A DNA stretch of 64,000 nt from Paenibacillus roseus (GTDB lineage Bacteria > Bacillota > Bacilli > Paenibacillales > Paenibacillaceae). The stretch covers positions 102,805-166,804 of the forward strand of contig NZ_JAELUP010000077.1 in assembly GCF_016424485.1 (NCBI RefSeq), written 5' to 3'. The position numbers were made by a program, and so were the translations under genes. A model generated the notes under the pieces. That model saw only the letters and a program-made list of their open reading frames with translations. It made no database searches and had not been told where the DNA came from. This document shows, piece by piece, positions 23,877-56,800 of this stretch. The first letter of the stretch is position 1. Every line of letters starts with the position of its first letter.

Positions 23877-24725
23877 GTGGAATGGCATACGATTGGCGAG
23901 GTTTCGAAGCTGTGCAATATCCCCATTCGGACGCTGCGATACTATGATGATATCGGCCTGCTCAAGCCGGGGAAAATCTCGCCTGAAACAAACTATCGCT
24001 ACTATTCAATAGAAGGGATACGCAGAATCCCGCTTATTAAATATTACAAACAGCTTGGCTTCAAGCTGGAAGATATTAAAGAAATGCTGGAGCGGCCGAC
24101 CTTTGGGGTATTGGAAGACTATATGGCCAAGGAACTGCTCATTGTCGAGAAGCAAATGGTCGTGCTGCAGAAGAAGCATTTTGCCATTAAGGAATGGCAG
24201 CGGCTGCTGGAGCAGGGGGAGACTTTGCTTACCAAGTCGGTAAATGAGAATAAGGTCACGCTGACCCGATTTCCCAAGTACCGCAGCTTGAAGTTCCGCT
24301 ACGAAATTGAGCATAGTCAATCTGCGGACATCGAGGTGCTTTACAGCAATCTTCTGGTTGAACTGTGCAGCCGCAATAATATTTTTGCATACGGGCCGTT
24401 CATGCTTTGTTTTGAGGATTTTCAACAGCGCAAGAACCATACCTTTACGGGCGTGGACTGCTATACCGCCGTTATTGAGGATGAGACGAACGAGGCTTTG
24501 ACGACGGAGGTGGGCGGATTCGATGCCGTCAGCCTTGTGCATAAGGGTGACTACCTGACCCTAGCGGACAGCTACGACAGAATTCAGGAATGGGCCGAGC
24601 AGCAGGGGATAGAGCTGCAGGGCGCTTCGTACGAGCGCTACATTATTGACCCGTGGAGTACAGCAGACAGCAACAACTACATTACGGAGCTTATTCTGCC
24701 GATTGGAGGGAGCGCCAATGACTAA
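23877..24725 (+). CDS. MerR-family regulator with effector-binding domain
   Basis: 282 aa. The N-terminal winged-helix is typical of MerR (IGEVSKLCNIPIRTLRYYDD, then KPGKISPETNYRYYS), followed by a coiled-coil dimerisation helix and a C-terminal GyrI-like effector domain, the BmrR/Mta-type layout. Such domains bind hydrophobic or cationic small molecules. Start: GTG at 23877 with AAAGGAGG seven bases upstream, preferred to an in-frame TTG at 23850. It overlaps the sulfurtransferase gene by eight bases. It probably regulates this transport operon, though no operator is evident. Confidence 0.85.
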   Translation: MEWHTIGEVSKLCNIPIRTLRYYDDIGLLKPGKISPETNYRYYSIEGIRRIPLIKYYKQLGFKLEDIKEMLERPTFGVLEDYMAKELLIVEKQMVVLQKKHFAIKEWQRLLEQGETLLTKSVNENKVTLTRFPKYRSLKFRYEIEHSQSADIEVLYSNLLVELCSRNNIFAYGPFMLCFEDFQQRKNHTFTGVDCYTAVIEDETNEALTTEVGGFDAVSLVHKGDYLTLADSYDRIQEWAEQQGIELQGASYERYIIDPWSTADSNNYITELILPIGGSAND

Positions 24726-25551
24726 TTTGATCCATTCATCCGAGGCGGTTCATCGCCTCCATGATCCGCATACGGTGTTTGCAGATGTCCGATTCGTGCT
24801 GGGAGAGCCGTCTGCCGGCTATGCGGCCTATGAGCGAGGCCATATTCCCGGCGCAGTTTTCTTCGATCTGAATGAGGACCTGTCCGGCCCCAAGCAGGAG
24901 CACGGCGGCGGTCATCCGCTGCCTCATCCCGATCTTTTTGCGGAGAAGCTGGGCCGTGCCGGCATTGACAGTCATACTCAGGTCATTGTGTACGATGATC
25001 AGGGCGGCAGCATTGCATCCCGTCTCTGGTGGATGCTGAAATATGCGGGACATGAACGGGTCAGGCTGCTCAATGATGGATATTCAGGCTGGCTCGCGAA
25101 TGGATACCCTGTAACGTCAGTGTCTTCCCGGCCTGAGGCCAAGCAGTTTGTTCCCCGTTGGAATGAGCGGCTGCAGGCGACGATTAGCGACGTTAAGGCT
25201 GCAATGGGGAAAGCGGACAGTGTGCTTATCGACTCGCGAATACACAACCGTTATACAGGTGAGGATACCTCGAAGTATTTGAAGGCCGGGCATATTCCGG
25301 GAGCGATTAATCATTACTGGGAAGACGGCTCGCCGGACGGCCTGTTTCTCGGCGCGGTCGAGCAGCGGGAGCGGTTCAAAGCCATCCCGGCAGATTGCGA
25401 AATTATCGTCTACTGCGGCGCGGGCGTTACCGCATGTCCGAATGTGCTTGCGCTAACGGAAGCAGGTTATAGTCATGTGAAGCTGTATGTGGGAAGCTGG
25501 AGTGATTGGATTAGCTACGAGGAGAATCCGGTGGCGACGGGGGAAGAGTGA
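24718..25551 (+). CDS. Thiosulfate/3-mercaptopyruvate sulfurtransferase
   Basis: 277 aa, two tandem rhodanese domains. The first is the inactive half (GHIPGAVFFD, YDDQGG in place of a Cys); the second carries the active-site Cys233 in CGAGVTAC, closer to the mercaptopyruvate enzymes (CG-x-GVTA) than to classical rhodanese. It transfers sulfane sulfur to a thiol or cyanide acceptor. Cytoplasmic. Start: ATG with GGAGGG seven bases upstream, overlapping the MerR gene. Its 3' end is duplicated twice downstream (25953 and 27276), which suggests that this gene end is a target for integrating elements. Confidence 0.87.
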   Translation: MTNLIHSSEAVHRLHDPHTVFADVRFVLGEPSAGYAAYERGHIPGAVFFDLNEDLSGPKQEHGGGHPLPHPDLFAEKLGRAGIDSHTQVIVYDDQGGSIASRLWWMLKYAGHERVRLLNDGYSGWLANGYPVTSVSSRPEAKQFVPRWNERLQATISDVKAAMGKADSVLIDSRIHNRYTGEDTSKYLKAGHIPGAINHYWEDGSPDGLFLGAVEQRERFKAIPADCEIIVYCGAGVTACPNVLALTEAGYSHVKLYVGSWSDWISYEENPVATGEE

Positions 25552-25598
25552 GAAGCGATAGGCCACGCCGGACGCGGGTTTGGGGGTTGTGACAGGTT
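25494..25598 (+). repeat. Sulfurtransferase 3'-end repeat, copy 1 (in gene)
   Basis: 105-base unit: the last 19 codons of the sulfurtransferase gene, the stop codon and 47 bases after it. It matches 25953-26057 at the same length with 10 differences by eye. Confidence 0.85.
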
Positions 25599-25952
25599 TC
25601 TGTTATCTTCCATTTTAATCGGTTTTGGAGTTTACACAATCTATTTTACAGACTCAGTGTTGCAGCCCATTCACCCCTCCGGGTGCTACCTTGCTTCACT
25701 TGGCCTTTTGTTGGCGTTTCGTTCGGCTTAACCCAGCCATAGGTGGATGACTTGCCCCGGCTCAAACTGTACTGTTCCGCCAGCCCCGTCCTCCACGGGT
25801 TTCTTGCTCCAAAAGTCCTCCCAAACGTAGCCAAGGGAGGTCGTTGCACATGGACGTTGGCATGTCCTCCGAGGCATTCCCGCCGCGCTGATCGGAACCC
25901 CTACTTTTTGGCGTTGGAACCCACTGAGCATAGGGGCTCGTGGAGGGATAAG

Positions 25953-26057
25953 AAGCTGGAGTGATTGGATTAGTTACGAGGGGAATCCGGTTGCGACGGG
26001 GGAAGAGTAAGAACCGAGAGGCCGTGTCGGACGCGGGTTTAGGGGTTGTGACAGGTT
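25953..26057 (+). repeat. Sulfurtransferase 3'-end repeat, copy 2
   Basis: A 105-base copy of 25494-25598, about 90% identical by eye and without gaps. It still encodes SWSDWISYEGNPVATGEE and a stop (TAA in place of TGA), so it looks like an end brought in from a related strain, not a fresh tandem copy. Confidence 0.85.
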
Positions 26058-26095
26058 GCCGTTGGGCAGGCTGTTGCGGCCCTCTTTGGCTTTTC

Positions 26096-26126
26096 TGTCA
26101 ACAGCTTGCAAAGAAGAAGTCGGCGA
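26096..26126 (+). repeat. 31-bp imperfect repeat, left copy
   Basis: Begins TGTCAACAGCTTGCAAA and ends TCGGCGA. It matches 33135-33165 with three differences by eye. The two copies enclose the accessory region. Confidence 0.6.
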
Positions 26127-26465
26127 GAGCAGTTGCAAGAAACTCGGAGTCAGCACAATGAGGCGGCCGGGTCAGGTTGTTGTTGAAGGGTATCGTGCGC
26201 CTTGCTTCCCTCCATCCACAAATAGGCGTGGCGCAACCTTTCGTGCGGAGCAAGTGGACGATCACCTTTGGGAACAATTCGCTTGGCTTTCCTTTGCGTT
26301 CCCAGTATCCACGGGTTTAGTGGCATTGGCATAGGGGAGTGGACGTGGTAGAACCAGAACCGTTCCATCGCGCAAACCATCACGACCGGGAGCCGTACCG
26401 GGCAAAATCCCTCCCGGAACCCGACCACCGCCGGAAGCAAACGCAGGAACAGCAAGAGCAAGCAT

Positions 26466-26699
26466 AGATTCAGCCACAAGCATGGGTACTCGCTTGGCTT
26501 CTCTTGCTTGCTCTTGGATTATTATTCAGCCACTCCCCCTGCAAGGCATCGCTTTTGTTGCTGTTGGGGTACGTTGGGAAAGCCTGAAAGTGACTATCCC
26601 TGTTTTGGCATGTTTTTTGGCTTGTGTTGTCCTCTTGGGTATTTAAATTTGACCGCACCCTGCCGTACCCCTGACACTGAAACAGATTCAGCCACAAGC
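26466..26699 (+). repeat. 16-bp perfect direct repeat pair
   Basis: AGATTCAGCCACAAGC occurs at 26466-26481 and 26684-26699. A partial third match (ATTCAGCCAC) lies near 26523. Possibly the ends of a lost element. Confidence 0.6.
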
Positions 26700-26964
26700 T
26701 ACTGTGCCTTCGTCACGTTTGCTGCGGCTTCGGCTGCTGTTGTGAGCAATTCGTCTAACTTCTCCGCCGCCTCTTGTTGAAGCGTCGGGAACAAGTGTGT
26801 TAAGCTTCCGGCAAATCCGGCAACCGCCAACTTGCGTTCTTCCGCTCATCCTGCCCGTCTTGCTCGTCCTTTTCTGGCTCGGTCAGGAGATGCTGGAATC
26901 GCTCGTACGGGAACATCATCCCACGAATACCCGCTTGTTCTTTTGTCTGTGAGCCTGCCGAGGG

Positions 26965-27141
26965 ATACTTGCGAAGGCTCAATTCGGTCAGTTCCTCCAG
27001 CTTGAGCGTCGAATACTTTTCGATCAACCAGCGTTGCAGATAGCGGTAGTGACTTTCGTGGTCGTTCAGCGTTCGGGGTTTCAAGCCTTCCGTTTTCTTG
27101 GCCCGGAGAAACAGGCTAGGCATTTGCGAGTTGACGCTCAT
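26965..27141 (-). pseudogene. Tyrosine recombinase (phage integrase) N-terminal fragment
   Basis: The minus-strand frame reads MPSLFLRAKKTEGLKPRTLN, then HYRYLQRWLIEKYS and LKLEELTELSLRKY, the pattern of the core-binding (SAM-like) domain of XerC/Tn554-type tyrosine recombinases. After LRKY the similarity is lost, and no catalytic Arg-His-Arg-Tyr domain follows, so it is a remnant. It lies between copies 2 and 3 of the sulfurtransferase gene-end repeat, as expected for a decayed integrative element. Confidence 0.65.
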
Positions 27142-27275
27142 CGATTTGCATGAGCCTGTAGCTATCGTGGGGAAACAGAAGCAATCAACAACAACCTGAC
27201 ATATTCCGGGCGCAATCAACCGCTTCTGGAAGTACAGACTGAACGATAAGGGTAACTTCAAGGAAGGGAAATTGG

Positions 27276-27334
27276 AGAGAGTGGATTAGCTATGAAGAGA
27301 ATCCGACAGCTACCGACGACGAAGAGAAGGCTTA
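27276..27334 (+). repeat. Sulfurtransferase 3'-end repeat, copy 3 (diverged)
   Basis: Encodes EWISYEENPTATDDEEKA and a TAA stop, in register with the ends of copies 1 and 2. The DNA core TGGATTAGCTAYGARGAGAA is shared with copy 1. With copy 2 it brackets the tyrosine-recombinase fragment, as left and right attachment sites would. Confidence 0.7.
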
Positions 27335-27984
27335 AGTCGTTATACAAGTTGTAAATCGAAGTATATTGCTCATGTGGCGATGTACTTTTTTGCGTTATGC
27401 TGGAAAATGTCGAAGTCAACAGGAAGTCAACGCTCACTCCCTGTAAACCATTTTCCTTGATTCCCCTAGTCCTGCTTCTGGGCAGTCCAGATTTTCGCAG
27501 CATTTCCAGCCATCTTGATTCAATATAGTAAGGTGTCAAAGAGGTCGTCTCGTATTGTCTTTCATAAGCTAAGTTTACTAGGTTTTTGGCTATTTCGATA
27601 GGTTGCATACAAGCCCTAGGCAAACACCATATTACCAAAGATTTAGGTGCTTTTTATGTTTTAAGAGGTGGTGTCTTCGTAATTCAGAGTTGACGTGGAT
27701 TCATGTATAGGGATACGAACTCCCCCTTTCATTTAAATCCATAGAAATAATCAAAAAAAATTAGACATTTTTCAATATAATTCGACAATAAAAATCAATT
27801 TTCACGGTTTACAATATTGGGTATTTTTAGTTATAGTTAGTATAGGTTTGGAAATAACATTCATTTATTATCAAACTAATTGCCAATTGGAAACAAATAA
27901 ATTTTTAATTTTATGTAAAAAAGAAGGGTTACAATGTTTGAATTGATGGCCAGCATTCAATATAAATTAACTAGGAGTGATAAA

Positions 27985-28614
27985 GTGAAAGTGAAAGTTA
28001 AATTATTTTATAATGCATTTTCCTTGACATTACTTGTGGTGGCGTTGATGTTAACTTTAGTTGGTTCGGCTAATGCTGAAAGTCTAAATAATACTGAAGT
28101 TTCGGTTGATGTTGAAAAATCCGATGATATCGAAGTTTCGGTTGATGCTGAAAATTCGGATGATACCGACGTTTCAGTAAATGCTGCAAAGTTCTACGGA
28201 TGGGATGTAACTGTCAATGGCACCCACTACGGTATCATTATGGATTCGGGGGTTTTGGTTACCCACTCCAACTATAATAATAGTGTGTACAATATGGATA
28301 GATCAGTTTCAAGGGAGTGGTACTATCAATCTGCCGGTAGCGTAGGGGGAAAAATTACTAGTAGTAGTAACGGTTTAGGTGCAGAGATAAGTGCTTCTTC
28401 AAGCTGGAGCTCATCATCTAAAGTGACTATAATAGATAGATTTACTCCAGCGATTCCAGGAAGACATAAATTTATTGCGGCTTATCAAATATTTTCTAAA
28501 TACATTCATGGTACCGCAACTTTTTACGTAGGATGGGTTGCTACTGACTCTGGTGGATTTGACCTATTTGAACCATCTTACGAGGCTTACTACACTGATA
28601 TAGTTCCCCTATAA
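27985..28614 (+). CDS. Secreted protein with short tandem repeat, unknown
   Basis: 209 aa from the GTG at 27985, which has TAGGAG seven bases upstream and gives a textbook signal peptide: MKVKVKLF, a long hydrophobic core, then cleavage after SANA. An ATG at 27934 in frame would add 17 residues. The mature protein opens with two and a half copies of a 13-residue acidic unit (EVSVDVEKSDDI, EVSVDAENSDDT, DVSVNAAKF), repeated also in DNA. The rest is Ser/Tyr/Gly-rich, predicted beta, with YQSAGSVGGKITSSSNGLGA and only one Cys-free domain. I do not recognise the family. Strongly AT-rich, unlike the flanks. The following genes (anchored protein, ABC ATPase, permease) suggest an exported toxin or bacteriocin with its own transporter (inference). 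Confidence 0.75.
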   Translation: MKVKVKLFYNAFSLTLLVVALMLTLVGSANAESLNNTEVSVDVEKSDDIEVSVDAENSDDTDVSVNAAKFYGWDVTVNGTHYGIIMDSGVLVTHSNYNNSVYNMDRSVSREWYYQSAGSVGGKITSSSNGLGAEISASSSWSSSSKVTIIDRFTPAIPGRHKFIAAYQIFSKYIHGTATFYVGWVATDSGGFDLFEPSYEAYYTDIVPL

Positions 28615-28765
28615 TAATACAATAACGAGCAATTAAGATAATCATTGACTTGTGATTATTGTAAGAAAAAGTTAGAGCCATCTATAATATTTCTATTCGA
28701 TATTATAGATGGCTCTATGTCACTGATTATATTCAGAAAGATTAGCCGAAAGAAGTGAGATTTTT

Positions 28766-29719
28766 ATGAAGATAAGATACGTTTTTCTGACTATATTTTT
28801 ATTTTCCTTGGCACTCCTATTATTGTCTATTTATAAATCTCAAAATAATAAAATTAATTTTCAACCAACGATTTTTCCATTTGATCATCTTATCACCTAT
28901 TATCCTAATAGTGAGGATCCGTTAGTTGAATTTACTCTTTTTGAAAACGCACCAAATTCCAAATTCAGTGAAAAAAACAACTATGAAGAAGTTAATTTGT
29001 TTTCTCCATCCTCCAATAGGAGGATATATGCGGAGCTAGTCAGTATAGGTGAAGCGACCTTTAAAATCGTTGGTAAACAAAAGGTGTATACAAGAAAATT
29101 AATATTTAGCATTCCACCAAGCAATGAAATAATGTCAGACGCAAAGTTAGAAATAAAAATATTCAATAATGATAAACCTTATTTGTTTGATGTGGGAAGT
29201 TTCTCATTTGTCGGTTACAGTGAAAAAGAAAATGTTATTGAATACTTGTCAGTTACTTCAATAACTCCTATTCTTAAGCAATTAGAACTAATTAGCACTG
29301 TAGGGATTATATTGGGTATAGACGTAAAAGAAACATTGACATTAAAGACCTTCAACCTAAATTTGGATAACTATGGTGTCAATCAAAAAAGTGTTTTTGT
29401 CACAAAAGAAAGCATTTCAAAAATCAGAGATTTGAATAGTTCCCAAACTTTAGATCAGTTGGCCAAAGGAGTATATGATTTTCCTAAAGAAACAAATCTG
29501 AGTAGTTCACTTGGGGATGTCGAATTAACCCCCGGTAAATATAATCTGATAATTCCTTTTTCTGTATCACATCAATATAATTCACTCTATTCTTTAGGAG
29601 GGGTTATTGATTATTCAGTGAATAATGAATTGTTTAGCAACGAGATTCCAGCAAATCGTTATTTGAAGATATTAAATTTTGAAGAGGAAGTTCTTAGGGG
29701 GGTTCTTTTTGAAAACTGA
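28766..29719 (+). CDS. N-terminally anchored extracellular protein, unknown
   Basis: 317 aa. A short basic start and one hydrophobic segment (about 7-22) anchor it; the remaining 290 residues are outside and predicted mainly beta. No Cys lipobox is seen. I recognise no domain. AAGAAGTGAG lies upstream of the ATG. Its 3' end overlaps the ATPase start at 29709 by 11 bases, so it is translated together with the transporter and may be its extracytoplasmic partner or an immunity factor (inference). AT-rich like its neighbours. Confidence 0.72.
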   Translation: MKIRYVFLTIFLFSLALLLLSIYKSQNNKINFQPTIFPFDHLITYYPNSEDPLVEFTLFENAPNSKFSEKNNYEEVNLFSPSSNRRIYAELVSIGEATFKIVGKQKVYTRKLIFSIPPSNEIMSDAKLEIKIFNNDKPYLFDVGSFSFVGYSEKENVIEYLSVTSITPILKQLELISTVGIILGIDVKETLTLKTFNLNLDNYGVNQKSVFVTKESISKIRDLNSSQTLDQLAKGVYDFPKETNLSSSLGDVELTPGKYNLIIPFSVSHQYNSLYSLGGVIDYSVNNELFSNEIPANRYLKILNFEEEVLRGVLFEN

Positions 29720-30657
29720 AGTTAGCGCTATTGAATTTTTTAATGTTTCCAAAAGATATAATAAAAGGAAATTTGGTGTGAAAGATATTAATCTTCATAT
29801 AAGGAGCAATAAGATTACGGTATTTGTAGGACAAAATGGTGCTGGTAAAACAGCCAATGAAACTAATGCTTGGTTTAATATCACCTACTGAAGGGAATAT
29901 CTACATTCAAAATAAATCAATTAAAGATAATAGAGGTAACATGGGAATAGGATATCTACCAGAAAATATCGTATTTCCTGAATTGCTAACTGTTACTGAA
30001 ACATTAAAAAACTTTGCGTTGACAAGAAGGGTTCCACATTCAAAATTTATTGAAAGGATTAATACATACTTTCAAATGTTTGGAATCTCAGATTCTTCCA
30101 AAGCACTGACTAAAAATTTATCAAAAGGAATGCGCCAAAAGGTTGGTTTGATTCAATCACTTATACATGATCCCGATATTTTGATATATGATGAACCGAC
30201 TACTGGTCTCGATCCTATATCCAGAAACAATTTCTTCAACCTCATAAAAGAACTGAAAGAAAGAGGTAAGACTTTTATTATATCATCCCATAATACAGAA
30301 GAAATAGAAAGTATTTGTGATGATGTGGTGTTTTTTGATCATTCCAAAACTATAGGACAAATTAGTGATGTAAGTAAAGTAACTGGAACTGATTTTGTTG
30401 TGAGGTACGATTCAAATAATAGTTCACTATCAATTGAACAGTTATCAACATATAAACCATGTATTCATTATATGGATAGTAAAAAAATAATAATTAAAAA
30501 CAGCCAGAATAAAAGTATGCAAGAGATAATCGAGTCACTTACTTCTCTAGGTGTAATGGTCGAATCTATAGAAAAACAAAAAAGTAAAATAGATGATAAA
30601 TATATTGAGTTTTTAAATAATACAAAAGTTGGAGGTTTAAACGAATCTGATAATTAG
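29709..30657 (+). pseudogene. ABC transporter ATPase with a frameshift in Walker A
   Basis: ATPase of an ABC-2 type exporter (CcmA-like). The first frame from TTG 29709 (AGGGGGG six bases upstream) reads to GQNGAGKTA and stops at 29889. The rest continues in the +1 frame: MKLMLGLISPTEG, signature LSKGMRQK, Walker B ILIYDEP, D-loop TGLD and H-loop SSHN. At about 29855-29862 the bases ACAGCCAATGAAA contain one more than needed for GKT-x-MKL, so a one-base insertion separates Walker A from the rest. An internal ATG at 29836 gives a 273-aa product without Walker A, which could not hydrolyse ATP. It is a natural mutation, a sequencing error, or, less likely, a programmed shift. Confidence 0.8.
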
Positions 30658-30756
30658 ACCTCAATAATCTCTCGGAATTAGAGCAGCCTTGAAGGGTTGA
30701 AGTGAGGTCTCTGAAACGCTGTTGCTGGAAAACATGAAAGATGAAAACCAATTTCA

Positions 30757-30782
30757 AAAATGGACGGACTCCGCCATTTTTT
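30757..30782 (+). terminator. Intrinsic terminator after the ATPase gene
   Basis: AAAATGG (30757-30763) pairs with CCATTTT (30774-30780), around a CGGA/TCCG inner stem, followed by T. If active it would separate the ATPase gene from the permease gene 1 kb on. Confidence 0.6.
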
Positions 30783-31853
30783 GAAGAATTACTTATTTAG
30801 AATGAGGCGGATCTCAGGGCTGACGTACCAGGTGTCCATGTGCTAGCAGAACAATACACACATCCTCGTCGAACGATGCCAGCCACCTTCTAGTTTGTAG
30901 TCGATCTTTTTAATAAAGAACCTAGACTGCCCTTAGTATTTGTGTAGAAGGTGCGACCGTATTTCGCTGTAGAGCAGCGACTAGGCAGGAATCTCCACTT
31001 ACGGCAATTCAACTTGGACTCCGTCCCGTTGGGCGAAATCTAAATGAAGGACTGAACGCCTTGGTGATCAAGAGGCAAATAAATACCCTCCCATCATGCG
31101 CGGCAGCAAGCAGCATTTTATTGATCGTATCCAAGGTATAATGTTGCTTAAATTTAACTGTGCTCTTGAACAAAGTGTCCGCGTCGTGCCGGGAAGCAGA
31201 CCTCAGCCTTTGGTACAAGGGCAAAACGTGTTTGCTATCCGTTGCTGAGATATACAGATAGTAGCTGTTGAAGTATTTCTCATGGCACTGTCCAAGTCGG
31301 AATTGCATTCTGGCTGGGAGTAAGACGATGATGGTTGCAATCAGCTATAACGTGGGCACGGCAATCGCAAGCGGGTTTGCTTCGAGGAAATGTGGATGTG
31401 ACAACGGGGTACCATCGCCAGTTACGCTAAGGGCTCCCATGTTCCCGATCCAACCCCGACTTTACGGATACAGCCGTAATCTGTGTTCGAAAGAAATGGA
31501 ACAAGCAATCAGCAGGTAAGGCCGTTTGCTTATCGGCATAGAGCATCATCAAATGGGCCAAACGCTTTTTCTAACTTTTACGTTGAGTGGTGAATCATAG
31601 ATTCTTGACCATTGCCGGGCAAAGCCGATGGAAGCTGTTGTAGAGCATGCCTACACTGGGAAGATCATCCTGAAGGTGCTTCTTATTTGAGTTTCCAAGA
31701 ATTCCTTGAACATTTTCAAAATGCAATATGGGGGAAAATGAAAAAACTCCTACGTAGGTAGAAGAGTACAATGAGAGGGTTCAAGGAAAGTCCTGTCCCA
31801 TCTGCCTCGGCGAATGCCGAGAGGTTATCTAAATATTTAGGAGGCATTGATTG
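30783..31853. other. Gap between ATPase and permease genes: IS remnant and unassigned DNA
   Basis: About 1 kb of less AT-rich DNA inside the AT-rich island. It holds the decayed transposase at 31009-31450; bases 31500-31790 may be more of its 5' part on the minus strand. No intact gene. Confidence 0.6.
31009..31450 (-). pseudogene. Decayed DDE transposase (IS1182/IS4-like)
   Basis: One minus-strand frame (31308-31009) reads KYFNSYYLYISATDSKHVLP, LYQRLRSASRHDADTLF and INKMLLAAAHDG, which is the region around the second and third catalytic acidic residues of IS1182/IS4-type transposases (pattern knowledge). Further upstream other frames give SVTGDGTPL and VVTSTFPRSKPACDCRA, the usual preceding segment (GDGTPVVTS, then Cys-rich). 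The pieces lie in different frames, so it is inactive. It lies between two genes of one ABC transporter. Confidence 0.65.
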
Positions 31854-32660
31854 ATGATTAGAATTTGTAACATCACTAGGTCTTTTATTATTACCTACTT
31901 ATCTCTCAAAACAGCCCTAGTATTGATTAGTGTATTAGTGTCAACATGTTTCATTTCATTAGCAGCATCTGGTTTCTTTGATTATTCTGTCTCAGAAAGA
32001 GATGTCAATGCAGTCTCAATGACAAATAGATATTACAACTCTTTCTTTGCTATGGTTTCATCAATATTTACATTTGTAATTGTTTTTTCTATAGCTTTAA
32101 ACTTTAATAAAAGCTCTAACAATAGTTCAGATTATATGTATCTAACCGGGGGGGTAAGTCGTAAATCTTTTTTAACTGCGAAGCTATTAGGCGTTGTAGT
32201 GATAAATGCTCTACTATTCTTATTATTAGCAGTTCTAGTTTCCTCCATTTCTGTGTTTTTTAATATAAGTTTTTTTGAATGGAATATATTTTTAACGGTA
32301 ATAACTCATGGATTGAATAGCACACTTTTATGTTTATTGGCGGTATTTTTGGTGATGTTATCAAGAAGTTCATTGGTTGGATGCCTCCCAATAATAGCTT
32401 ATTATTTATATAATATTTTTTACTCATCAGCAAGATACTCTAATGATTATATAAATATAGTAGATTCTGGTGTGTATAAGATATCCAATGCCTTACTTCC
32501 CGTTTTTACATATAAGCCATTTGATATAACTAATGCAAATGAATATACATATCTATTTAATTTAAATTTAGAACCACATTTCGGAATAGCATATTTTGTT
32601 GGATATCTTATTATATTGTCAATTATTTCTGTTTATATATATTCTTCGAAAGATTTATAA
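31854..32660 (+). CDS. ABC-2 type transporter permease
   Basis: 268 aa with six hydrophobic segments, spaced as in ABC-2 exporters: an N-terminal cytoplasmic piece, TM1 (about 18-40), a large loop with Ser/Asn (FNKSSNNSSDYMYLTGGVSRKS), then paired segments. It probably belonged with the ATPase at 29709. ATG 31854 has AGGAGG nine bases upstream. AT-rich as the rest of the island. As its ATPase is frameshifted it may now be non-functional unless served by another. Confidence 0.78.
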   Translation: MIRICNITRSFIITYLSLKTALVLISVLVSTCFISLAASGFFDYSVSERDVNAVSMTNRYYNSFFAMVSSIFTFVIVFSIALNFNKSSNNSSDYMYLTGGVSRKSFLTAKLLGVVVINALLFLLLAVLVSSISVFFNISFFEWNIFLTVITHGLNSTLLCLLAVFLVMLSRSSLVGCLPIIAYYLYNIFYSSARYSNDYINIVDSGVYKISNALLPVFTYKPFDITNANEYTYLFNLNLEPHFGIAYFVGYLIILSIISVYIYSSKDL

Positions 32661-33213
32661 CTATCCATAGATGAAAAAGTTGTTTTTTAGCAGTTGTCAA
32701 CGTGAGGTAGCCCGTTATATCCTAACCTCGCTAATGACCACGGACAATCTGTAATTGACGTAGCGGCTTAACGCGTCTAAAAACTTGTCGAGCTCGTCGT
32801 TTGACGGGAATCGGCATTCCAGAAGATAGTCTCATAACGAAATGGTACGTGTCGAGTTTATTGAGTCAAGATGGAAGCAAAGATCAGAACGGTACCCTTA
32901 ACATCAACCGAATTCATCCAGCGAAACCTGGAGCCGCGGTTGTAGTCAAAAGCGACTTTGTAAGGGATTGTCAAATACGACTTTCATTAACGAAACCGAT
33001 GTGATAACCGATAAGCTGTAGGCATATTCCCGGTTTGATTTCGAAAGCCGGAAAATTGTATTCGTTACGGGAGGTTTATTGATCCTTGGAGTAGTAGAAC
33101 ATATTTTCTAATCTTGATATGATATATACTAAGGTGTCAATAGCTTGCAAACAAGAACTCGGCGAATCAAGTGTGTGCAAGGTGTACCAATTGATTATAA
33201 ATAGGAGAATGTC
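32661..33213. other. Gap with a short unassigned frame and the right 31-bp repeat
   Basis: Base composition returns to that of the chromosome. A 67-codon frame at 32801-33004 (GIGIPEDSLITKWYVSSLLS) looks like a protein fragment but has no ribosome site. The right copy of the 31-bp repeat is at 33135-33165. No intact gene. Confidence 0.5.
33135..33165 (+). repeat. 31-bp imperfect repeat, right copy
   Basis: Begins TGTCAATAGCTTGCAAA and ends TCGGCGA; three differences from 26096-26126. It stands 48 bases before the next gene and roughly marks the right edge of the accessory region. Confidence 0.6.
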
Positions 33214-33786
33214 ATGTCCTGGAGTAAATTAAAGCAGCAACTGGAGAGCTTTCTTAGCCCTGCATTACAAGGGAAAGTCGAGTACCGGGCAACCGGCTAT
33301 CGATACTTACCTGATAAAGCAGGCATTTGTTATATTACGGTGAATAAAAAAAACGTCCTTAATTTGAATGACGCAACGATACCGATTAAATGGTATCAGT
33401 CGGAGCAGGAAATAAAAAATGCGCTTATTCATATCGACATTCTACTCAGTCATGAAGAGATCGAGGCAGTCCGATTAAGCATGAACGGGAAGGTTCCTGA
33501 GGATCGGCTGGCTATCATTGCAAGAGATAGAAAAATAACAGAAGCCGCAAAGGAAATCCAGGCCGCACATGCGGCGTTAATCAAATCCAATTTCACAGCT
33601 GTAGCTAATCGGTTTTTGTCTACCCCCATTGAAGAGAGTATAGATAGCAAGGATATTTTATTAACGATATTGGCCCTGGTAGACAGACGAGTCGGGAAAA
33701 AGCGGCTTTTAAATATGTCCCAAAAAATAAAGCTAAAGCATCCGGCTGTTCAATATTTTTATGAGCTGCGTCTTCACTCGTTCTAA
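33214..33786 (+). CDS. SF0329-family-like protein
   Basis: 190 aa. The start WSKLKQQLESFLSPALQGKV, then the Tyr/Arg-rich YRATGYRYLPDKAG and YITVNKK, is reminiscent of the SF0329 family of small bacillar proteins; function unknown. Soluble, basic, no signal peptide. Start: ATG with TAGGAG seven bases upstream. It is monocistronic, with a terminator at 33850. It lies just outside the right 31-bp repeat and has ordinary base composition. Confidence 0.6.
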   Translation: MSWSKLKQQLESFLSPALQGKVEYRATGYRYLPDKAGICYITVNKKNVLNLNDATIPIKWYQSEQEIKNALIHIDILLSHEEIEAVRLSMNGKVPEDRLAIIARDRKITEAAKEIQAAHAALIKSNFTAVANRFLSTPIEESIDSKDILLTILALVDRRVGKKRLLNMSQKIKLKHPAVQYFYELRLHSF

Positions 33787-48506: not shown

Positions 48507-51500
48507 TTGCTTAGAAAGCACAAGACACACAGGCTGCTGGGTATACTGCTGATCCTGTCCACGCTGCTGTTGCCGCTGCAGGGTATGTTCATCAGCGTGG
48601 CGCAGGCGGCCGGGGAGGACCGCGAAGTATTTTTCGGGAACGGTGTTCGCGTTGGAAACCAGACGTATTCAGCGACGAACGCCGTTGTGAACTTCAATTC
48701 TCAGAAAGACGGCTTTACCTATTCCAAATCCGGAGATGTAACGATAGATTTCGGCGCCGGTGACACATTCTCAACCAACGGATCAGTAGCTGTATTCGAG
48801 CTTGATGTTTCCAAGAACAGCTATCTGAAAGAGCTTGCCGCCAGCGGTCATGCCGAGGTTCAGGTCGGCTGGAGTGCTCTGGATTGGATAGAGGAATGTA
48901 CAAGGAGCGTGTTTGGCATTTGCCTGGACAAGGACTACCAGGGCACAGAGGCCTGGATTGACATCGGCGGTGTGAACCAGATTCATGAAAGAGCCTACCA
49001 TGGCGGTGTAGGGCCGAGAAGCATAACCCGGGTTCTGGGAACGGAGACAAAGATTAGAGTCACTATCGAAGGAATTCGCGACAGCACGGACGAGAGGTCA
49101 GGAGTCCGGGGGCTTTACTTCAGATTCAAGGATGTGACAGCGCCGGTCATGACGGGCTACACCTTTACCGGCGACGGGGCGGAGCGCACGAATCCCAATA
49201 CCGGTGAAGAGGAGCTGTATGTCAAGGCCAACGAGAATATTACGCTGGCTTATGAGTTCAGCGAGCCTGTTAGACCTACCGCGTTAAACTCCGGTTACTA
49301 TGAGCATTTTCTCAGGCACCCGCTGTTTGTGAATCCGACAGGAACGGGGCTTCCGGCAGCCGGGCAGCAGCAATACTTGCAGAACCGGACTTATACTTCC
49401 GCAGCGAGTCTGAAAGAGTTGAACAGCAGGATTGTATATCAATACATAGGCGCCAAGTATCATCATAGCGGCAATATTCCGCTTGACCCCAAAATTACCG
49501 GAACCTCGGATGGCTCGCCAATCGACCAGACGATGGAGCAGAAGCTGAAGGATGCTGTTCTGACTGATGCAGCCGGGAATGCGGTAAGGCCGAACTTTCC
49601 AGGCAAGGCAAGCACGGCCAGCCTCGATTACCTCAAGTCCAAGACCGTGAACCCGTTTGATTACAAAAACGGCGGCTTTAAAGTCATTGTCGATGCTGTA
49701 GCGCCGAAGTACACGAAGGCAGGCAACGGCATTCAGCCGGAAATTCTGACAGGCATGACGCTGAATAACAATGACGTGATCGACTTCAGCCTGCAGTTGT
49801 CGGAAGAAGCGGTCGTGAGGAAGGGCTATGTAGCGACCAATACCTACCTGCTCCTTAACAACGGGATAAAAGCTCACTACGTCTCCGGTGAGAACAGCGA
49901 TAAATGGCTGTTCAGAGCCTACGTGACGGACAAACTGATAGATGAGACGCCGCTGTTGAAGGTGATTGCGCTTAGCAATAGTCAGAAGGGGGATGACTCC
50001 GACAAGGGTGTTCTCCAGGACTATGCCGGCAACATACTCATGCAGCCTGCCAATTACCAGGGGCTGCACCGGGATGAGAACGGCGAGGACGAATCACTAG
50101 TGAATTCGACGATCGACTGGGCCAAGCTGTCTATCGATAACACCAAGCCGGTCATCGGATTCCGTTATGAAGCGGATGGAGCTACTGACCTGATTTATCG
50201 TAAAAACGGCAAGGTAACGATTGACGCCAATGATCCACCCGTCAAAATTCCACATCTGGAGCCGGATGCGAGCCAGCGCGGAACCGAGCGGCCGAGCCGC
50301 GGGATTTACCGCCCGTCCAACATGACAGGACCGGCTTCGCCGTCTGTCGGCTTGGTCTACTACTGGTGGAGCCAAAGCCCGGATAATCCTTTTGCAGATA
50401 AAGGGGCTGACCAGTTCGCGGCGATCAAGCGCTACGCATTGTCCGCCAAGCAGCCGTCAGAAGAGCTGTACCCGGGGGAATACGCGAATGTGCAGCTTCA
50501 GGTCACGAACAACAAGACGAACCTGATTGCACCGCCTTCTGAAGCCTTCACTGCCGAAGGCAGCGGAGAGTGGTACTTGCACGCATGGACTGCTGATATG
50601 ACTTGGGATTCAGCCAGGGAACTAATGCAATATGCAAAGATGAAAAGCTATATCAGCGATAACCCTGGCCAGTACGAGGCTTGGAAAGCCGAGCTGGCGA
50701 ATGCGCCCGAGGCGGAGCAGATTTTTTACGCCAATAACAAGGCTATGCAGGCTGTCGGACAATACGGAGACACAGCCGTCTGGCCGCTCTCGAACTTCAA
50801 GCAGGAAGATTCCAACTGGACCTATGCAGTGACCACACTGAAGATGGACAATAAAGCGCCTGATGTTGTCTTTAGCCAGGTGACGGGCGACCAGAGTGTC
50901 AATGTACAGGTGGAAGCTGTTATTGATGACAAGCACAGCGGTGTTGACCAGGTATTCTATCAGTGGGTGAAGGATGGCAGCCAGCCAAGCGATATTGAGT
51001 GGCGTCCTGCAGTGATTTCCGGCACTCAGGCCAGATTTGCGACACAGAACAACGTATTTGAAGACGGACAATATTGGCTGTACATCAAGGCCTCGGATCA
51101 TGCGGGCAATGAAGGCATTACGATGTTGGAAGCTCCGGTAACGGTCAATTCGGAACAGACTGTCCATGCCGAATTTGTAACCGAGGCCAATCCGAATTAT
51201 GCGCAGAGCCATGCTGTACGGTTCTATATTAGCGGCATTGTCCCGGAGAAAGTTGCTTATGCATACAGCATAAGCGCGGCCAGGCCATCCGTGGGAGCTT
51301 ATACGGATTTGACTATTTCTCCTGATGACCCGGATAACTATCTCATTCCCGCCGATCCAGACCGTAACGGCATCCAATATTTGCACCTGATGGCCAAGGA
51401 AGGTGAACGGTATTATTACTATTCCAAAGCCTACTATTTCGATAATGAACCGCCTGCCATTTCCTTCAGCAAAAGTGGTGTCGCCTACCCGCTGGATTCG

Positions 51501-53729
51501 CAGGAAGTGCAAGTAACGGTTACTGAGCCATACAGCAAGCAGGGACTTTCCGTTCGCTACCAGTGGGTCAGGGATGGAGAGGCTGCACCGGACGAGAGCT
51601 CTCCGCTATGGGAAGTGCTCCCCGAAGGGGGAGTGGCTGCTATAGACGCCTCCCGCCTTCAACCGGGCGAAATCGCAGACTTCCGCTTGCATGTGCTGGC
51701 GGTAGACGGCGCAGGCAACCGGGCGCTTGCAGGGACAACCGGTACGTTCAAGGTATCCCGGGCAGGAGGCAGCGATACAGAGCCGGCGGCTTCCCAGTCT
51801 GACCTGATCTATGTACATGGGGACGAGCAGGACGGCTATACGGCAATTCTCAAGCTGAGTCTGGATACGGTGGATAAGCGCGGCTATGAATTTTCACTGT
51901 CGCCGGATTACGGGGTCAGTTGGGGGAAATGGCGTCCATATACCAATTTTGCCTCCCTTAAGGTTCCCGCAGGAACGGTTGCCGACCAGCAGATTATGGT
52001 CAAATACCGGACTCCCGGGGGCAAGATGAGTGAGCCGCAGCCGCTGAGAGCCGGTACACTGTCACCAGTAGAGCCGGTGTACGCCATTGCGACGCTTCAT
52101 ACGACAAGACCGGTGAACCCGAATCGCGGGGTGGATATCGAGGTTGCGGCGCCGCTGGGCATTAAGATTGTAACGTCTGCCGTTAATCCGGCGCCTCTGA
52201 TTCGCAAGGGCAATACGTTTACGGTGAAAGAGAATGGCTATTACGCCTTTGACCTGACGGATACCGCGAACCCTGATCGGAAAGAGACGCTTTACGCTGT
52301 CGTAAACAGTATTGACGGCGACACGCCCGTTGGAAGCATCGAGTATTTGATCACTGGACCGACGAATAGCAATGTCACGGTCAAACTTGGAACCTCCAAG
52401 CCGGTGCAGATTACAAACAACCAGGGGCGCAACGTATACATCTTTAACGAAAACGGCTCCTTTACTTTCGAATTTAAGGATGAGGCAGGAAATACAGGGA
52501 CAGCTACAGCAACCGTGTCCAATATTGACAAACAAGGGCCGCGGGTAAAACTCGTTCGCTCCTATAATTATGGTCCGGACGGCAGCCGGACCTTCGGTAC
52601 GATTCGGGATCATAACGGCAACGTCATACTGTCCTCTGGCGTCACGCTCGAAGTGCAGAAGGAAGACGCGCTGGCCAAAGACTTTATTGTGTTGAACAGC
52701 AAGCCTGCTGTCTCTATAGAGCGCAACGGGACACTGGAGTTTATCGTAGCGGATTTGTTTGGCAATACGACCGTGCTCAAAGAAGAGGTGAGCAGCATTG
52801 TAGCGGAAGCGCCTGCTCCCGATAACATTGCGTACACCTTTGTCGATGAGCAAGGCAATCCGGTACCACCCGCTAAAATCGCAACGATTGACGGCAGGAA
52901 GTATGCCAAAGGCAGCGTCAAGGTGACGCTTACCGGGAAGACCGCCGAGCCTAACCGCGTATTTGCAGGAATGGCCCCGATTGTAGAAGGCGGTGCTTAC
53001 AGCAATGAGATTACGAAGGCTGACGGAAGCTTCTCTTATGCGAGAACTTTTTCCGCTGAAGGCCAGACCATCATTGCAATCTCCGATTTGCTCGGCAATG
53101 TGAACCGCATTCCGGTAACCGTACAGGGACTTGACAATAAAGCGCCCGAACTGGTGCTGAAGCAGGCGCAGGCCGGAGTAGTGCAGAACAAGAAAAATTT
53201 TGATTTCCGTACGGACCTGGGCGGGTACACGGTGACGGACAATGTTTCCAAGCCGGAGAATATTAAAGTATCCATCAGCGCTCTGGACCTTAGCAAGACC
53301 GGACGCCAGCAGGTCACCTATACGGCGACTGACGAGGTGGGGAATACTTCCACAATTGTTCAGGATGTGTACGTAATTGGCGAAGACGGCATGTTGATCT
53401 TCGGCAATGGGGCGCTCATTTCCGCTGGTCTGGGCGAATCTGTATTGTTCGATACCAACGCGGTAACGTTCAATATCTCCCGCCACAACCTGATGAATAT
53501 CGGCGGCAAACGGGAAGTCAATGAACGCGGAACCTACGAACTGATGTACCAGTCCGGCTTGTACCGTGAAGGCCAGATGAAATATATTGCCAAGAAGCTT
53601 ACTTATGAAGAATTGGTGAACGGCAAATTTACCGTCACTTTCCCTCAGGCAGGCTGGTACACCATTATTGTCCGAAATCAGGAACGCGAGCGCGAATACG
53701 CAACCTTCTTTATTTCCAGGACGAAGTAG
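48507..53729 (+). CDS. Giant secreted protein with Ig-like modules (1740 aa)
   Basis: Signal peptide of about 34 residues (RKHKTHRLLGILLIL, cleavage near AQAAG). After an N-terminal domain of about 200 residues come repeated Ig-like or bacterial cadherin-like modules; each ends or begins with a D-N/T-x-A/P-P-V/E theme (DNTKPVIGF, DNKAPDVVF, DNEPPAISF, DKQGPRVKL, DNKAPELVL). Four Cys lie only near the N-terminus (EECTRSVFGICLD). No SLH, sortase or lipobox anchor is seen, so it may be free or bound to the next protein. Start: TTG 48507 with GGGAGG eight bases upstream. Likely a surface or matrix protein; function unknown. Confidence 0.8.
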   Translation: MLRKHKTHRLLGILLILSTLLLPLQGMFISVAQAAGEDREVFFGNGVRVGNQTYSATNAVVNFNSQKDGFTYSKSGDVTIDFGAGDTFSTNGSVAVFELDVSKNSYLKELAASGHAEVQVGWSALDWIEECTRSVFGICLDKDYQGTEAWIDIGGVNQIHERAYHGGVGPRSITRVLGTETKIRVTIEGIRDSTDERSGVRGLYFRFKDVTAPVMTGYTFTGDGAERTNPNTGEEELYVKANENITLAYEFSEPVRPTALNSGYYEHFLRHPLFVNPTGTGLPAAGQQQYLQNRTYTSAASLKELNSRIVYQYIGAKYHHSGNIPLDPKITGTSDGSPIDQTMEQKLKDAVLTDAAGNAVRPNFPGKASTASLDYLKSKTVNPFDYKNGGFKVIVDAVAPKYTKAGNGIQPEILTGMTLNNNDVIDFSLQLSEEAVVRKGYVATNTYLLLNNGIKAHYVSGENSDKWLFRAYVTDKLIDETPLLKVIALSNSQKGDDSDKGVLQDYAGNILMQPANYQGLHRDENGEDESLVNSTIDWAKLSIDNTKPVIGFRYEADGATDLIYRKNGKVTIDANDPPVKIPHLEPDASQRGTERPSRGIYRPSNMTGPASPSVGLVYYWWSQSPDNPFADKGADQFAAIKRYALSAKQPSEELYPGEYANVQLQVTNNKTNLIAPPSEAFTAEGSGEWYLHAWTADMTWDSARELMQYAKMKSYISDNPGQYEAWKAELANAPEAEQIFYANNKAMQAVGQYGDTAVWPLSNFKQEDSNWTYAVTTLKMDNKAPDVVFSQVTGDQSVNVQVEAVIDDKHSGVDQVFYQWVKDGSQPSDIEWRPAVISGTQARFATQNNVFEDGQYWLYIKASDHAGNEGITMLEAPVTVNSEQTVHAEFVTEANPNYAQSHAVRFYISGIVPEKVAYAYSISAARPSVGAYTDLTISPDDPDNYLIPADPDRNGIQYLHLMAKEGERYYYYSKAYYFDNEPPAISFSKSGVAYPLDSQEVQVTVTEPYSKQGLSVRYQWVRDGEAAPDESSPLWEVLPEGGVAAIDASRLQPGEIADFRLHVLAVDGAGNRALAGTTGTFKVSRAGGSDTEPAASQSDLIYVHGDEQDGYTAILKLSLDTVDKRGYEFSLSPDYGVSWGKWRPYTNFASLKVPAGTVADQQIMVKYRTPGGKMSEPQPLRAGTLSPVEPVYAIATLHTTRPVNPNRGVDIEVAAPLGIKIVTSAVNPAPLIRKGNTFTVKENGYYAFDLTDTANPDRKETLYAVVNSIDGDTPVGSIEYLITGPTNSNVTVKLGTSKPVQITNNQGRNVYIFNENGSFTFEFKDEAGNTGTATATVSNIDKQGPRVKLVRSYNYGPDGSRTFGTIRDHNGNVILSSGVTLEVQKEDALAKDFIVLNSKPAVSIERNGTLEFIVADLFGNTTVLKEEVSSIVAEAPAPDNIAYTFVDEQGNPVPPAKIATIDGRKYAKGSVKVTLTGKTAEPNRVFAGMAPIVEGGAYSNEITKADGSFSYARTFSAEGQTIIAISDLLGNVNRIPVTVQGLDNKAPELVLKQAQAGVVQNKKNFDFRTDLGGYTVTDNVSKPENIKVSISALDLSKTGRQQVTYTATDEVGNTSTIVQDVYVIGEDGMLIFGNGALISAGLGESVLFDTNAVTFNISRHNLMNIGGKREVNERGTYELMYQSGLYREGQMKYIAKKLTYEELVNGKFTVTFPQAGWYTIIVRNQEREREYATFFISRTK

Positions 53730-53871: not shown

Positions 53872-56800
53872 GTGCTGCTGATGAGAAAAACGCTAGTCTT
53901 TATGCTTGCTCTTATCCTGTTGCTTCCTTCCAATATAAGCGGCATTCAGGCGATTGCGGCGGCAGCTACGGCACCGAAGGTGACCGTACTGCAAAATGAT
54001 TTTATCAAGGTAACGGTGGACAACAGCACGGGACGCTTCGGTATCCGTACCGTGGAAGGCCAGCCGGTCCGCAAGAAGGACCAGAACGTCGATATGCTGT
54101 TCCGCGGCGACGATCCGGAGACCTCCTTTACGACCTTTAAAATCGACGGAACCGATTATATTTTCGGCAATCCGTATAAATTCGCTTCCGGGCTGTTCTC
54201 GGAAATTACCGCGCCAAAAATCGTGAGCAATCCAAACGGCACGAAGCAGATCGAAACGGTGTGGAAAATAAAAGGCGTGGAGATCAAGCAGATTTTAATG
54301 CTGTATTCAGACAGCGCCGACAAGAAAAATTCCGGTAACGTCAATGTCCGTTATGAAGTCGTGAACAGAAGCGGGGCAAGGGTACAGCTTGGCAGCCGGA
54401 TTCTGCTTGATACAATGGTCGCGGGCAATGACGGGCCAGAGTTCCAGATCGGGACCATCTCCACGCAACCGCTTATGGTGGAGCGCAAGCTGGTTCATGA
54501 TCCGAAGAAGCTGGGCATTCCCGATGAGGATGCGGCGTTCTACAAGCTGCCTCCTTATTGGGTAATGCGGGACAATCTGGATTTGGCTGATCCGCTCGCT
54601 ACGAACGTAATTGCCTACGGCTTCAATAATTTTGCCGAGGGGAATATCAATCTCGTAGACGAGATGATCGTTGGTCACTGGAATGGACTGGCGAACACGA
54701 AGTGGGATTACAAGCCGAACCCGAATCTCGATTTTACACGCGATACGAATGACTATGGCACCGCCGACTCGGCAGTCGCGTTTTATTGGCTGCCAAGGGC
54801 GCTCAATGACAAGGCGGTACAGACGTTTGAGACCGTCTACGGGCTGGGCGAGATTATTGAGCCCAATCAAGTGTTTTCCATCCGCTATATCGATCCGGTA
54901 CAGCAGCTTGCCACCCTATCGGATAATAGTGATTATGCGAACGAAGGCGTCTTTGATATTATTGCCGAGGTCGAGAATCTTGCCTCTTTTAATATGGAGC
55001 AATCCAAAATCAACGTGGAGCTGTCTTTGCAGAACGGATTGAACTTCGTCAAGCTGGATGATCAGGGGCGGGTTGTACGGGATCAGAACGGCAAGGTGGC
55101 AACCGAGGCGTTCCGCAGCAAGTCGCTGGAGTTCATGAAGCCGGCAACCCCGGAGGAAGCAGCGCAGGGGATTATCCCGAAGTATAAGCCTGGCGATACG
55201 GTAACGGTAGCTTTCAAAGTGCAGGCCAAGGGCAGACCATGGCCGGTGACGAGGGAGTACATGCTCAAGGTCAAAAGCCCGGAAACACAAGCGAAGCTGG
55301 GCCAGCCAAACCAGAACGGCATTCAGGATGAGGACATAAAAGCGCAATACGAATCGAGCAAGGCAAACTTTATTTTGCTTCCTGCTGTCGGCAATGCGGT
55401 CCCAACTTATGTATATGCGATGTCGCCAAAGGAACTGTACAGCAAGGACATCAAGTACATTACGGTCAACCTGTCGAATATTGAAGCTTACCATACAGGC
55501 AACGAAACGACGCCTCCCAACTTCGATTTATATCTGCAGGAAAAGGCAACCGGGAAGCGGTACAAAGTATCGGTCAAGGACTCGGTTATTTTGCAGCCGA
55601 CAGATGACGGCTTCTCCGGTGATATGCGGATCGCATACCGTGGAGGGGAACTGGTTAACGCCGCGGGTGATGTCATTCAGGCCGGACTCGGGCCGGAGCT
55701 GCCGCTGGGCGAGTACCAGGTGCAGATTGACTTCAAGGGGGACACTGGCGGGGACAAAGAAATCGCTGCCATGTATGATATTACAACCAGTCAATTGTTC
55801 AGGGTCACCGACAATCCGAAATCACGGATCAGAGAAGCGGGTCTCATGGCGCTCTACAAGCAAACCGTTGATTTGAAGCATGTGGCAACAGGCGGCGCTC
55901 CTGGTCAGGAACTGCTCGATGAGTTAAACAGTTTGTTCCCTGGTGAGCCGTTTAAGCAAGGAGCGGATTTATACAGTTCAATTACAGCTTTCAAGCAGAC
56001 GAAGACCTTATTCGGAATCGCGAGCAAGGCGGCCGATCCGAAGTTCAAGCTGGACGAATTCCTGGATGAGGATTCACTGGAGGAAGTGCCGGCCTATAGC
56101 TACAAGCTGTTCTCTTCCGAGGAAGAAATGGAACAGTTCTTTGATGAAGAGAGCGAGGAAGGCGCAAAACGCGAGAAGCTCGTTGTCGTCAGGGGCATGA
56201 TCCGGGAAGTGGGCGAGGGCAAGGATCTCCAGGCCGTCGTCGATACCCGCACGGAACCTGCAATTATTAACGACGCCGTCGCTTATAAAGGCAAGGACAT
56301 GGTCTTTGTCCGCGGCAAACTGGATATTTTCGGTGTGAAAAGCAAGGTGAACGGCTATGACCGGATGCCGTTTTTCGATTCCTTATTTGTAAAAGGTGAC
56401 GGCTTGCTCAGTGTGGCAAGCAGCGGTTTCGTCTTCCACCGGGGAGAGTGGACGCTTGATTTCTATAACGGCTTCAACAAGACCGTTGGCGACAGTCTGG
56501 TCGAGGACGAAGAGGAAGAAGACGAAGAGAAGGAAAAAGAGAAAGACAATGACGGCAACGAAGAGGACGACAGTCTGAACGGCAGTCTGAAATGGGCGGT
56601 CGGCGGTCTCGGAGACCGGATTAATCCGCTTCGCCAGGTGATGATTGAGAAGGTGTATTTTAACAAGCACAGCTTGTTCGCGGCTCCGAGCTTTTCGATC
56701 TCCGGCTTCGGCTTCTCCTTTAACGATTTCATACTGCGCGAGGGCGGCGTCTCCTTTGGCGGCTCGATCAAGCTGAAGGTGGTCGAGGGCGAAGTTAAAA

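What the first reader, a model, noticed from the sequence alone, without database searches (positions are those of the whole stretch)
27640..32660. AT-rich set: secreted repeat protein, anchored outer protein and a dedicated ABC exporter
Four same-strand genes with unlike composition to the flanks: a secreted 209-aa protein, a 317-aa anchored outer-face protein overlapping an ABC ATPase, and an ABC-2 permease. The layout resembles bacteriocin loci in which a secreted effector is encoded with an anchored partner and an ABC transporter for immunity, but I recognise neither of the two exported proteins. It may be an undescribed effector-immunity system.
Basis: partly seen in the sequence, partly recalled or inferred. 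Interest (0 to 1): 0.7.

Follow-up and report, generated by a model that had tools for sequence, protein, structure and literature searches.

The report
Decayed orphan secreted-protein/ABC-transporter gene set
A small foreign-looking, AT-rich block of bacterial genes encodes a secreted protein, a membrane-anchored partner and an ABC transporter with no recognisable close relatives, but the transporter's ATPase is frameshifted and a dead transposon sits in the middle, so here it is probably a decaying remnant, not a working weapon-and-shield system.

Summary
There is a same-strand, AT-rich set (third-position GC 0.20-0.30 against 0.40-0.66 in flanking genes): a 209-aa Sec-type secreted protein with three 12-aa repeats, a 317-aa N-terminally anchored outer-face protein, a DrrA/GldA-like ABC ATPase and a six-TM-like permease. 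(1) The ATPase is split: its reading frame changes directly after Walker A. (2) ATPase and permease are separated by a 1.16-kb, heavily degraded insertion-sequence relic on the minus strand with matching inverted ends. The original operon was therefore 317-ATPase-permease, preceded by the secreted-protein gene and an 18-bp perfect hairpin. I found no relative of the secreted protein, the anchored protein or the permease in family- and class-level genome samples, plasmids, phages or viral contigs (not every protein was run against every set). Closest ATPases are about 31% identical over full length and have unrelated neighbours. So the system is an orphan, horizontally acquired and damaged in this genome. 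Its former role as a secreted effector with an ABC self-protection or export module remains the most plausible reading, but rests on architecture alone. No recurrence was found, though distant homologues could be missed.

The parts
27808..27837 (+). promoter-like site (TTTACA-18-TATAGT) upstream of the secreted-protein gene
   Evidence: Consensus match 10 of 12; such sites are not clearly more frequent in the region than in shuffles, so only suggestive.
27985..28614 (+). secreted 209-aa protein: signal peptide, three 12-aa acidic repeats, Ser/Gly-rich beta-type C-terminal part; no cysteines
   Evidence: ORF and GTG start with AGGAG Shine-Dalgarno; 36-nt repeats D2; no Pfam/NCBIfam/PHROG/PADLOC match at cut-off.
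28673..28717 (+). 18-bp perfect inverted repeat, 9-nt loop, between the secreted-protein gene and the anchored-protein gene
   Evidence: I3; the intergenic RNA folds 5.2 sd below shuffles.
28766..29719 (+). 317-aa protein with one N-terminal membrane anchor, remainder outside, predicted mainly beta; possible remote DUF6252 resemblance
   Evidence: Hydropathy; DUF6252 19.6 bits, E 0.0011, below the 27.2 cut-off; structure prediction unusable (pLDDT 34).
29709..29891 (+). ABC ATPase, first fragment with Walker A; frame ends at a stop shortly afterwards
   Evidence: TTG start after a G-rich Shine-Dalgarno; matches relatives up to GxxGAGK[ST].
29836..30657 (+). ABC ATPase, remainder in another frame (homology from 29857): Q-loop region, LSKGM signature, Walker B, H-loop
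   Evidence: Pfam ABC_tran 57 bits from profile position 28 on; DrrA/GldA-like; frame change shown against five relatives.
30665..31827 (-). degraded insertion sequence separating ATPase and permease; transposase relic with several frame changes and stops; ends ATAATCTCTCGG / ATAACCTCTCGG in inverted orientation
   Evidence: 48% identity over 64 aa to an Alicyclobacillus plasmid transposase, E 1e-7; tblastn of that 492-aa transposase places pieces of residues 110-478 in three frames; inverted ends; right end also present in a same-genus genome, 78%.
31851..32660 (+). 269-aa polytopic membrane protein, ABC-2-type permease by topology and position (TTG 31851 or ATG 31854)
   Evidence: AGGAGG Shine-Dalgarno; about six hydrophobic segments; only a sub-threshold ABC2_membrane_4 match.

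Best explanation
This is a horizontally acquired, now damaged operon of a secreted protein plus an ABC-2-type exporter with an extracellular anchored accessory subunit. As it arrived, the order was: secreted protein, hairpin (which would hold down read-through or stabilise the first message), anchored outer-face protein, ATPase, permease. Most likely mechanism (inferred, not shown): the 209-aa protein leaves by the Sec pathway and acts outside on other bacteria or the cell surface; the anchored protein meets it on the outer face and hands it to the ATPase-permease pump, which clears it from the producer's membrane, as in bacteriocin self-protection. Shown: the signal peptide, anchor, gene order, foreign composition, the frame change that separates Walker A from the rest of the ATPase, and the IS relic between ATPase and permease. 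In this genome the pump should be inactive unless the frame change is an assembly error.
For: Foreign composition. Overlapping anchored-protein and ATPase genes, and an ATPase stop only about 38 bp from the permease start if the IS relic is discounted, indicate one operon. Split ATPase. IS relic with inverted ends and a broken transposase. A strong hairpin sits after the first gene; in the as-48 cluster an inverted repeat likewise follows the structural gene, and an adaptor-ATPase-permease transporter gives immunity (PMC8306556). The IS relic has collected at least five to seven stops or frame changes in 836 bp against one in 3,340 bp of the surrounding ORFs (p between 1.6e-3 and 9e-5 if both decayed equally), suggesting that the ORFs were held by selection after the IS landed.
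Against: No homologue of the secreted, anchored or permease protein was found, so neither the effector role nor linkage by co-occurrence is supported. The secreted-protein gene has its own promoter-like site and a hairpin behind it and may be an independent neighbour. The ATPase is generic, about 31% identical over its full length to its best matches, in loci with other neighbours. The selection argument assumes that the IS was intact on arrival.
Confidence: 0.45

Rival explanations
1. Two unrelated things side by side: an independent secreted-protein gene and a remnant three-gene ABC-2 exporter (anchored accessory, ATPase, permease) for some other substrate such as a lipid, polymer or drug, which arrived on the same AT-rich DNA.
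For: Separate promoter-like site and hairpin behind the first gene; 151-bp gap; the first gene is less AT-rich (GC 0.38) than the other three (0.28-0.31).
Against: Same strand, same foreign composition class, immediate adjacency.
Confidence: 0.3
2. A complete, working exporter: the ATPase frame change is a sequencing or assembly error, or is bypassed by programmed frameshifting, and the IS relic is simply transcribed through.
For: Draft assembly of 117 contigs; all other ORFs are intact; the permease keeps its own good ribosome-binding site.
Against: The site has no homopolymer longer than four bases and no recognised slippery heptamer; spacing to the relatives does not fit a single-base slip; 1.16 kb of relic separates the ATPase from the permease.
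Confidence: 0.15
3. The exporter is the secretion route of the 209-aa protein, not its immunity system.
For: Adjacency.
Against: The 209-aa protein has an ordinary Sec signal peptide, so it does not need a dedicated ABC exporter; ABC-2-type pumps of this size usually move lipids, small drugs or membrane-inserted peptides (established knowledge).
Confidence: 0.1

Closest known systems
Enterocin AS-48 / MR10 second transporter (as-48EFGH; PMC8306556)
   Same: An extracytoplasmic adaptor, an ATPase and a permease encoded in a row in a bacteriocin cluster and giving self-protection; an inverted repeat behind the structural gene.
   Different: The AS-48 effector is a short circular peptide; the MR10 adaptor is an RND-type subunit of 406 aa, whereas the 317-aa protein shows no family match; no cyclisation or as-48B/C/D1-like gene was seen here.
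Lactococcin 972 system (structural gene plus orf2-orf3 ABC transporter; PMC4055356)
   Same: A secreted bacteriocin protein followed on the same strand by genes for a putative ABC transporter thought to give immunity.
   Different: No Lactococcin_972 Pfam/NCBIfam match in the 209-aa protein; the ATPase scores 70 bits against a cut-off of 255 for the lactococcin-972 ABC family.
Lantibiotic LanFEG immunity transporters, DrrAB/BcrAB-type ABC-2 exporters
   Same: The ATPase is of this broad type (DrrA 125 bits, gallidermin ABC 100 bits).
   Different: Scores are far below the curated cut-offs; no lanthipeptide gene; LanE/LanG models do not match the permease.

Membership tests
ABC-2-type exporter | ABC ATPase with Walker A, signature and Walker B in one chain | tested here: not met
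   All motifs are present but in two frames; frame change directly after Walker A.
ABC-2-type exporter | polytopic permease of the ABC-2 superfamily | tested here: inconclusive
   About six hydrophobic segments, but ABC2_membrane_4 only 9.8 bits against a cut-off of 27.
Lactococcin 972 bacteriocin system | structural protein matches Lactococcin_972 family | tested here: not met
   No match in Pfam or NCBIfam at E up to 10.
Lactococcin 972 bacteriocin system | ATPase of the TIGR03608 subfamily | tested here: not met
   70 bits against a cut-off of 254.85.
AS-48-type second transporter | HlyD/RND-type periplasmic adaptor subunit | tested here: not met
   The 317-aa protein has no adaptor-family match.
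AS-48-type second transporter | confers protection against a co-encoded antimicrobial | not testable with these tools
   Needs a growth-inhibition assay.
JUQZ-1/BLB8 bacteriocin family (NF053514) | score above curated cut-off of 40 bits | tested here: not met
   14.6 bits over residues 13-92 only; the model also gives many weak hits in unrelated large proteins.
DUF6252 (317-aa protein) | score above gathering cut-off of 27.2 bits | tested here: not met
   19.6 bits, E 0.0011: a lead only.
Effector-immunity system (general) | same gene order recurs in independent genomes | tested here: not met
   No recurrence in 297 family genomes (209 and 317 aa singly), 399 class genomes (fused query, few candidates scored), 395 order genomes (permease), 330 class genomes (ATPase), plasmids, phages, viral contigs, or two genome-contig scans. 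Distant relatives could be missed.

The most novel reading that the evidence does not exclude
The 209-aa protein founds a new family of Sec-secreted antibacterial proteins whose producers are protected by a new type of three-part ABC-2 pump with a beta-rich anchored receptor subunit; this genome carries a degraded copy, and intact copies exist in unsampled low-GC Bacillota.
Probability: 0.17. Interest if true: 0.55.

Novelty: new variant of a known kind. Interest (0 to 1): 0.27.

Why it matters
If the set is a degraded effector-immunity module, the two exported proteins would be founding sequences for new families and useful seeds for finding intact copies. If not, the locus is an example of how foreign operons decay at an insertion-prone chromosomal site and of why apparent systems must be checked for broken frames before being proposed.

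Tried and rejected
AlphaFold2 without an alignment on both exported proteins gave pLDDT of about 34, so no fold search was run. Permease hits in order-level genomes: the two loci whose ORFs were read had the match antisense to ribosomal-protein genes or to a solute-binding-protein gene, and the other scores are equally weak, so all were discarded. ATPase-guided search for neighbours: no 209-, 317- or 269-like protein beside the best ATPases. The JUQZ/BLB8 bacteriocin model was followed into 200 genomes and found non-specific. No Rfam family in the region. Empty-site comparison in the genus: the rhodanese and SF0329 genes that flank the region lie on different contigs or far apart in relatives, so there is no clean empty site. 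The 31-nt repeat at 26096 and 33135 as an att site: rejected, because the sequence to the right of the left copy still matches the relatives' rhodanese downstream DNA.

Full report
What is there. The secreted protein is best started at GTG 27985 (209 aa; AGGAG seven bases upstream), has a signal peptide ending ANA|ES, then three 12-aa acidic repeats (36-nt period) and a Ser/Gly-rich C-terminal part with alternating polar and apolar residues. The 317-aa protein has one strong N-terminal membrane segment preceded by basic residues, with the rest outside. Its end overlaps by 11 bases the TTG start of an ABC ATPase with a good ribosome-binding site. The last gene is a 269-aa membrane protein with about six hydrophobic segments. 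GC content (0.28-0.38) and third-position GC (0.20-0.30) differ clearly from the flanking genes (0.39-0.56 and 0.40-0.66), and ORFs of this length do not occur in shuffled sequence. A perfect 18-bp inverted repeat lies between the first and second gene; the intergenic RNA folds 5.2 standard deviations below its shuffles.

First, the ATPase is split. The frame that holds Walker A runs to a stop at 29891; the signature, Walker B and H-loop are in a different frame (29836-30657). Against five relatives the homology changes frame within the four bases after the Walker A codons, where intact proteins have two codons. The site is not a long homopolymer and no usual slippery heptamer is visible, so a real disabling mutation is more likely than a one-base sequencing slip, but reads were not available. 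Second, the 1.2 kb between ATPase and permease is an insertion-sequence relic on the minus strand. A 99-aa piece is 48% identical over 64 aa to an annotated Alicyclobacillus plasmid transposase (E 1e-7). That full transposase aligns in pieces from residue 110 to 478 across three frames, with stops and deletions, and the relic ends in near-identical inverted repeats at 30665 and 31827. Its right end is also seen in a same-genus genome (78%), but no other copy is present in this genome. Discounting the relic, the ATPase stop and the permease start are about 38 bp apart, so the ancestral operon was 317-ATPase-permease.

Relatives. No relative of the 209- or 317-aa protein was found in 297 genomes of the family. 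None of the three orphan proteins was found in a fused query over 399 genomes of the class (few candidates per genome were scored). Plasmids gave no match to any of the three, nor did viral contigs, and phages gave none to the 209- and 317-aa proteins. One genome-contig scan with the 317-aa protein and one with the ATPase core found nothing. Permease hits in 395 genomes of the order were weak; the two inspected were antisense artefacts. The best ATPases in 330 class genomes are about 31% identical over full length, and a direct comparison of their neighbourhoods with the 209-, 317- and 269-aa proteins found nothing. Limits: the contig scans use exact 8-mers and see only close relatives; the profile searches covered a sample of species. 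The proteins are therefore orphans in what could be searched, not proven unique.

Neighbourhood. The upstream side (25.5-27.6 kb) is a patchwork. The 3' end of the rhodanese gene recurs in two degraded copies (25952-26332, 89% identical over 112 bp to the intact gene end and 75% over 385 bp to relatives' rhodanese downstream DNA; and 27161-27475) with a 350-bp insertion between the first two, and a weakly supported tyrosine-recombinase relic lies at 26803-27210 on the minus strand. This suggests an insertion-prone place in which the AT-rich set is one of several arrivals. The downstream SF0329-family gene (33214-33786) is an ordinary gene shared with most of the sampled genus.

Interpretation. 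The architecture (secreted protein; hairpin; anchored outer protein; ATPase; permease) works like bacteriocin loci with a self-protection transporter. In the as-48 cluster an adaptor-ATPase-permease set gives immunity and an inverted repeat follows the structural gene (PMC8306556); in the lactococcin 972 operon a structural gene is followed by transporter genes thought to give immunity (PMC4055356). Membership fails wherever it could be tested: no bacteriocin, adaptor or permease family matches at cut-off, and the ATPase scores far below every curated subfamily. I therefore keep 'works like an effector with an ABC protection module' as an inference at about 0.45, and give about 0.85 to the narrower statement that this is a horizontally acquired, presently damaged set. 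One piece of evidence suggests past usefulness: the IS relic carries at least five to seven stops or frame changes in 836 bp while the surrounding 3,340 bp of ORFs carry one (p 1.6e-3 to 9e-5 under equal decay), which fits selection on the ORFs after the IS landed and a recent loss of the ATPase. The assumption is that the IS was intact when it inserted.

Verdict. Interest is modest: orphan exported proteins are a possible lead, but the locus is damaged and without a family.

Noticed in passing
24718-27475: The 3' end of a rhodanese gene recurs in degraded copies at 25952-26332 and 27161-27475; relatives in the genus carry conserved DNA downstream of several rhodanese paralogues, suggesting a recombination or insertion hot spot.
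   Followed up: partly
26803-27210 (minus): Weak tyrosine-recombinase (integrase) N-terminal relic next to the AT-rich set (E 0.2-0.8 to Bacillaceae plasmid integrases).
   Followed up: partly
26096-26126 and 33135-33165: 31-nt direct repeat, 90% identical, bracketing the region; the right copy also matches a same-genus rhodanese downstream sequence. Origin not resolved.
   Followed up: partly
48507-53729 and 53872-61542: Two very large ORFs (1740 and 2556 aa); the second carries S-layer homology domains and a glucodextranase B domain, the first has no Pfam match at E 1e-5: probably giant surface proteins.
   Followed up: no
L010:1501-1612: The right end of the same IS relic occurs in a same-genus genome beside another ABC ATPase/ABC-2 permease pair; probably coincidence.
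   Followed up: no
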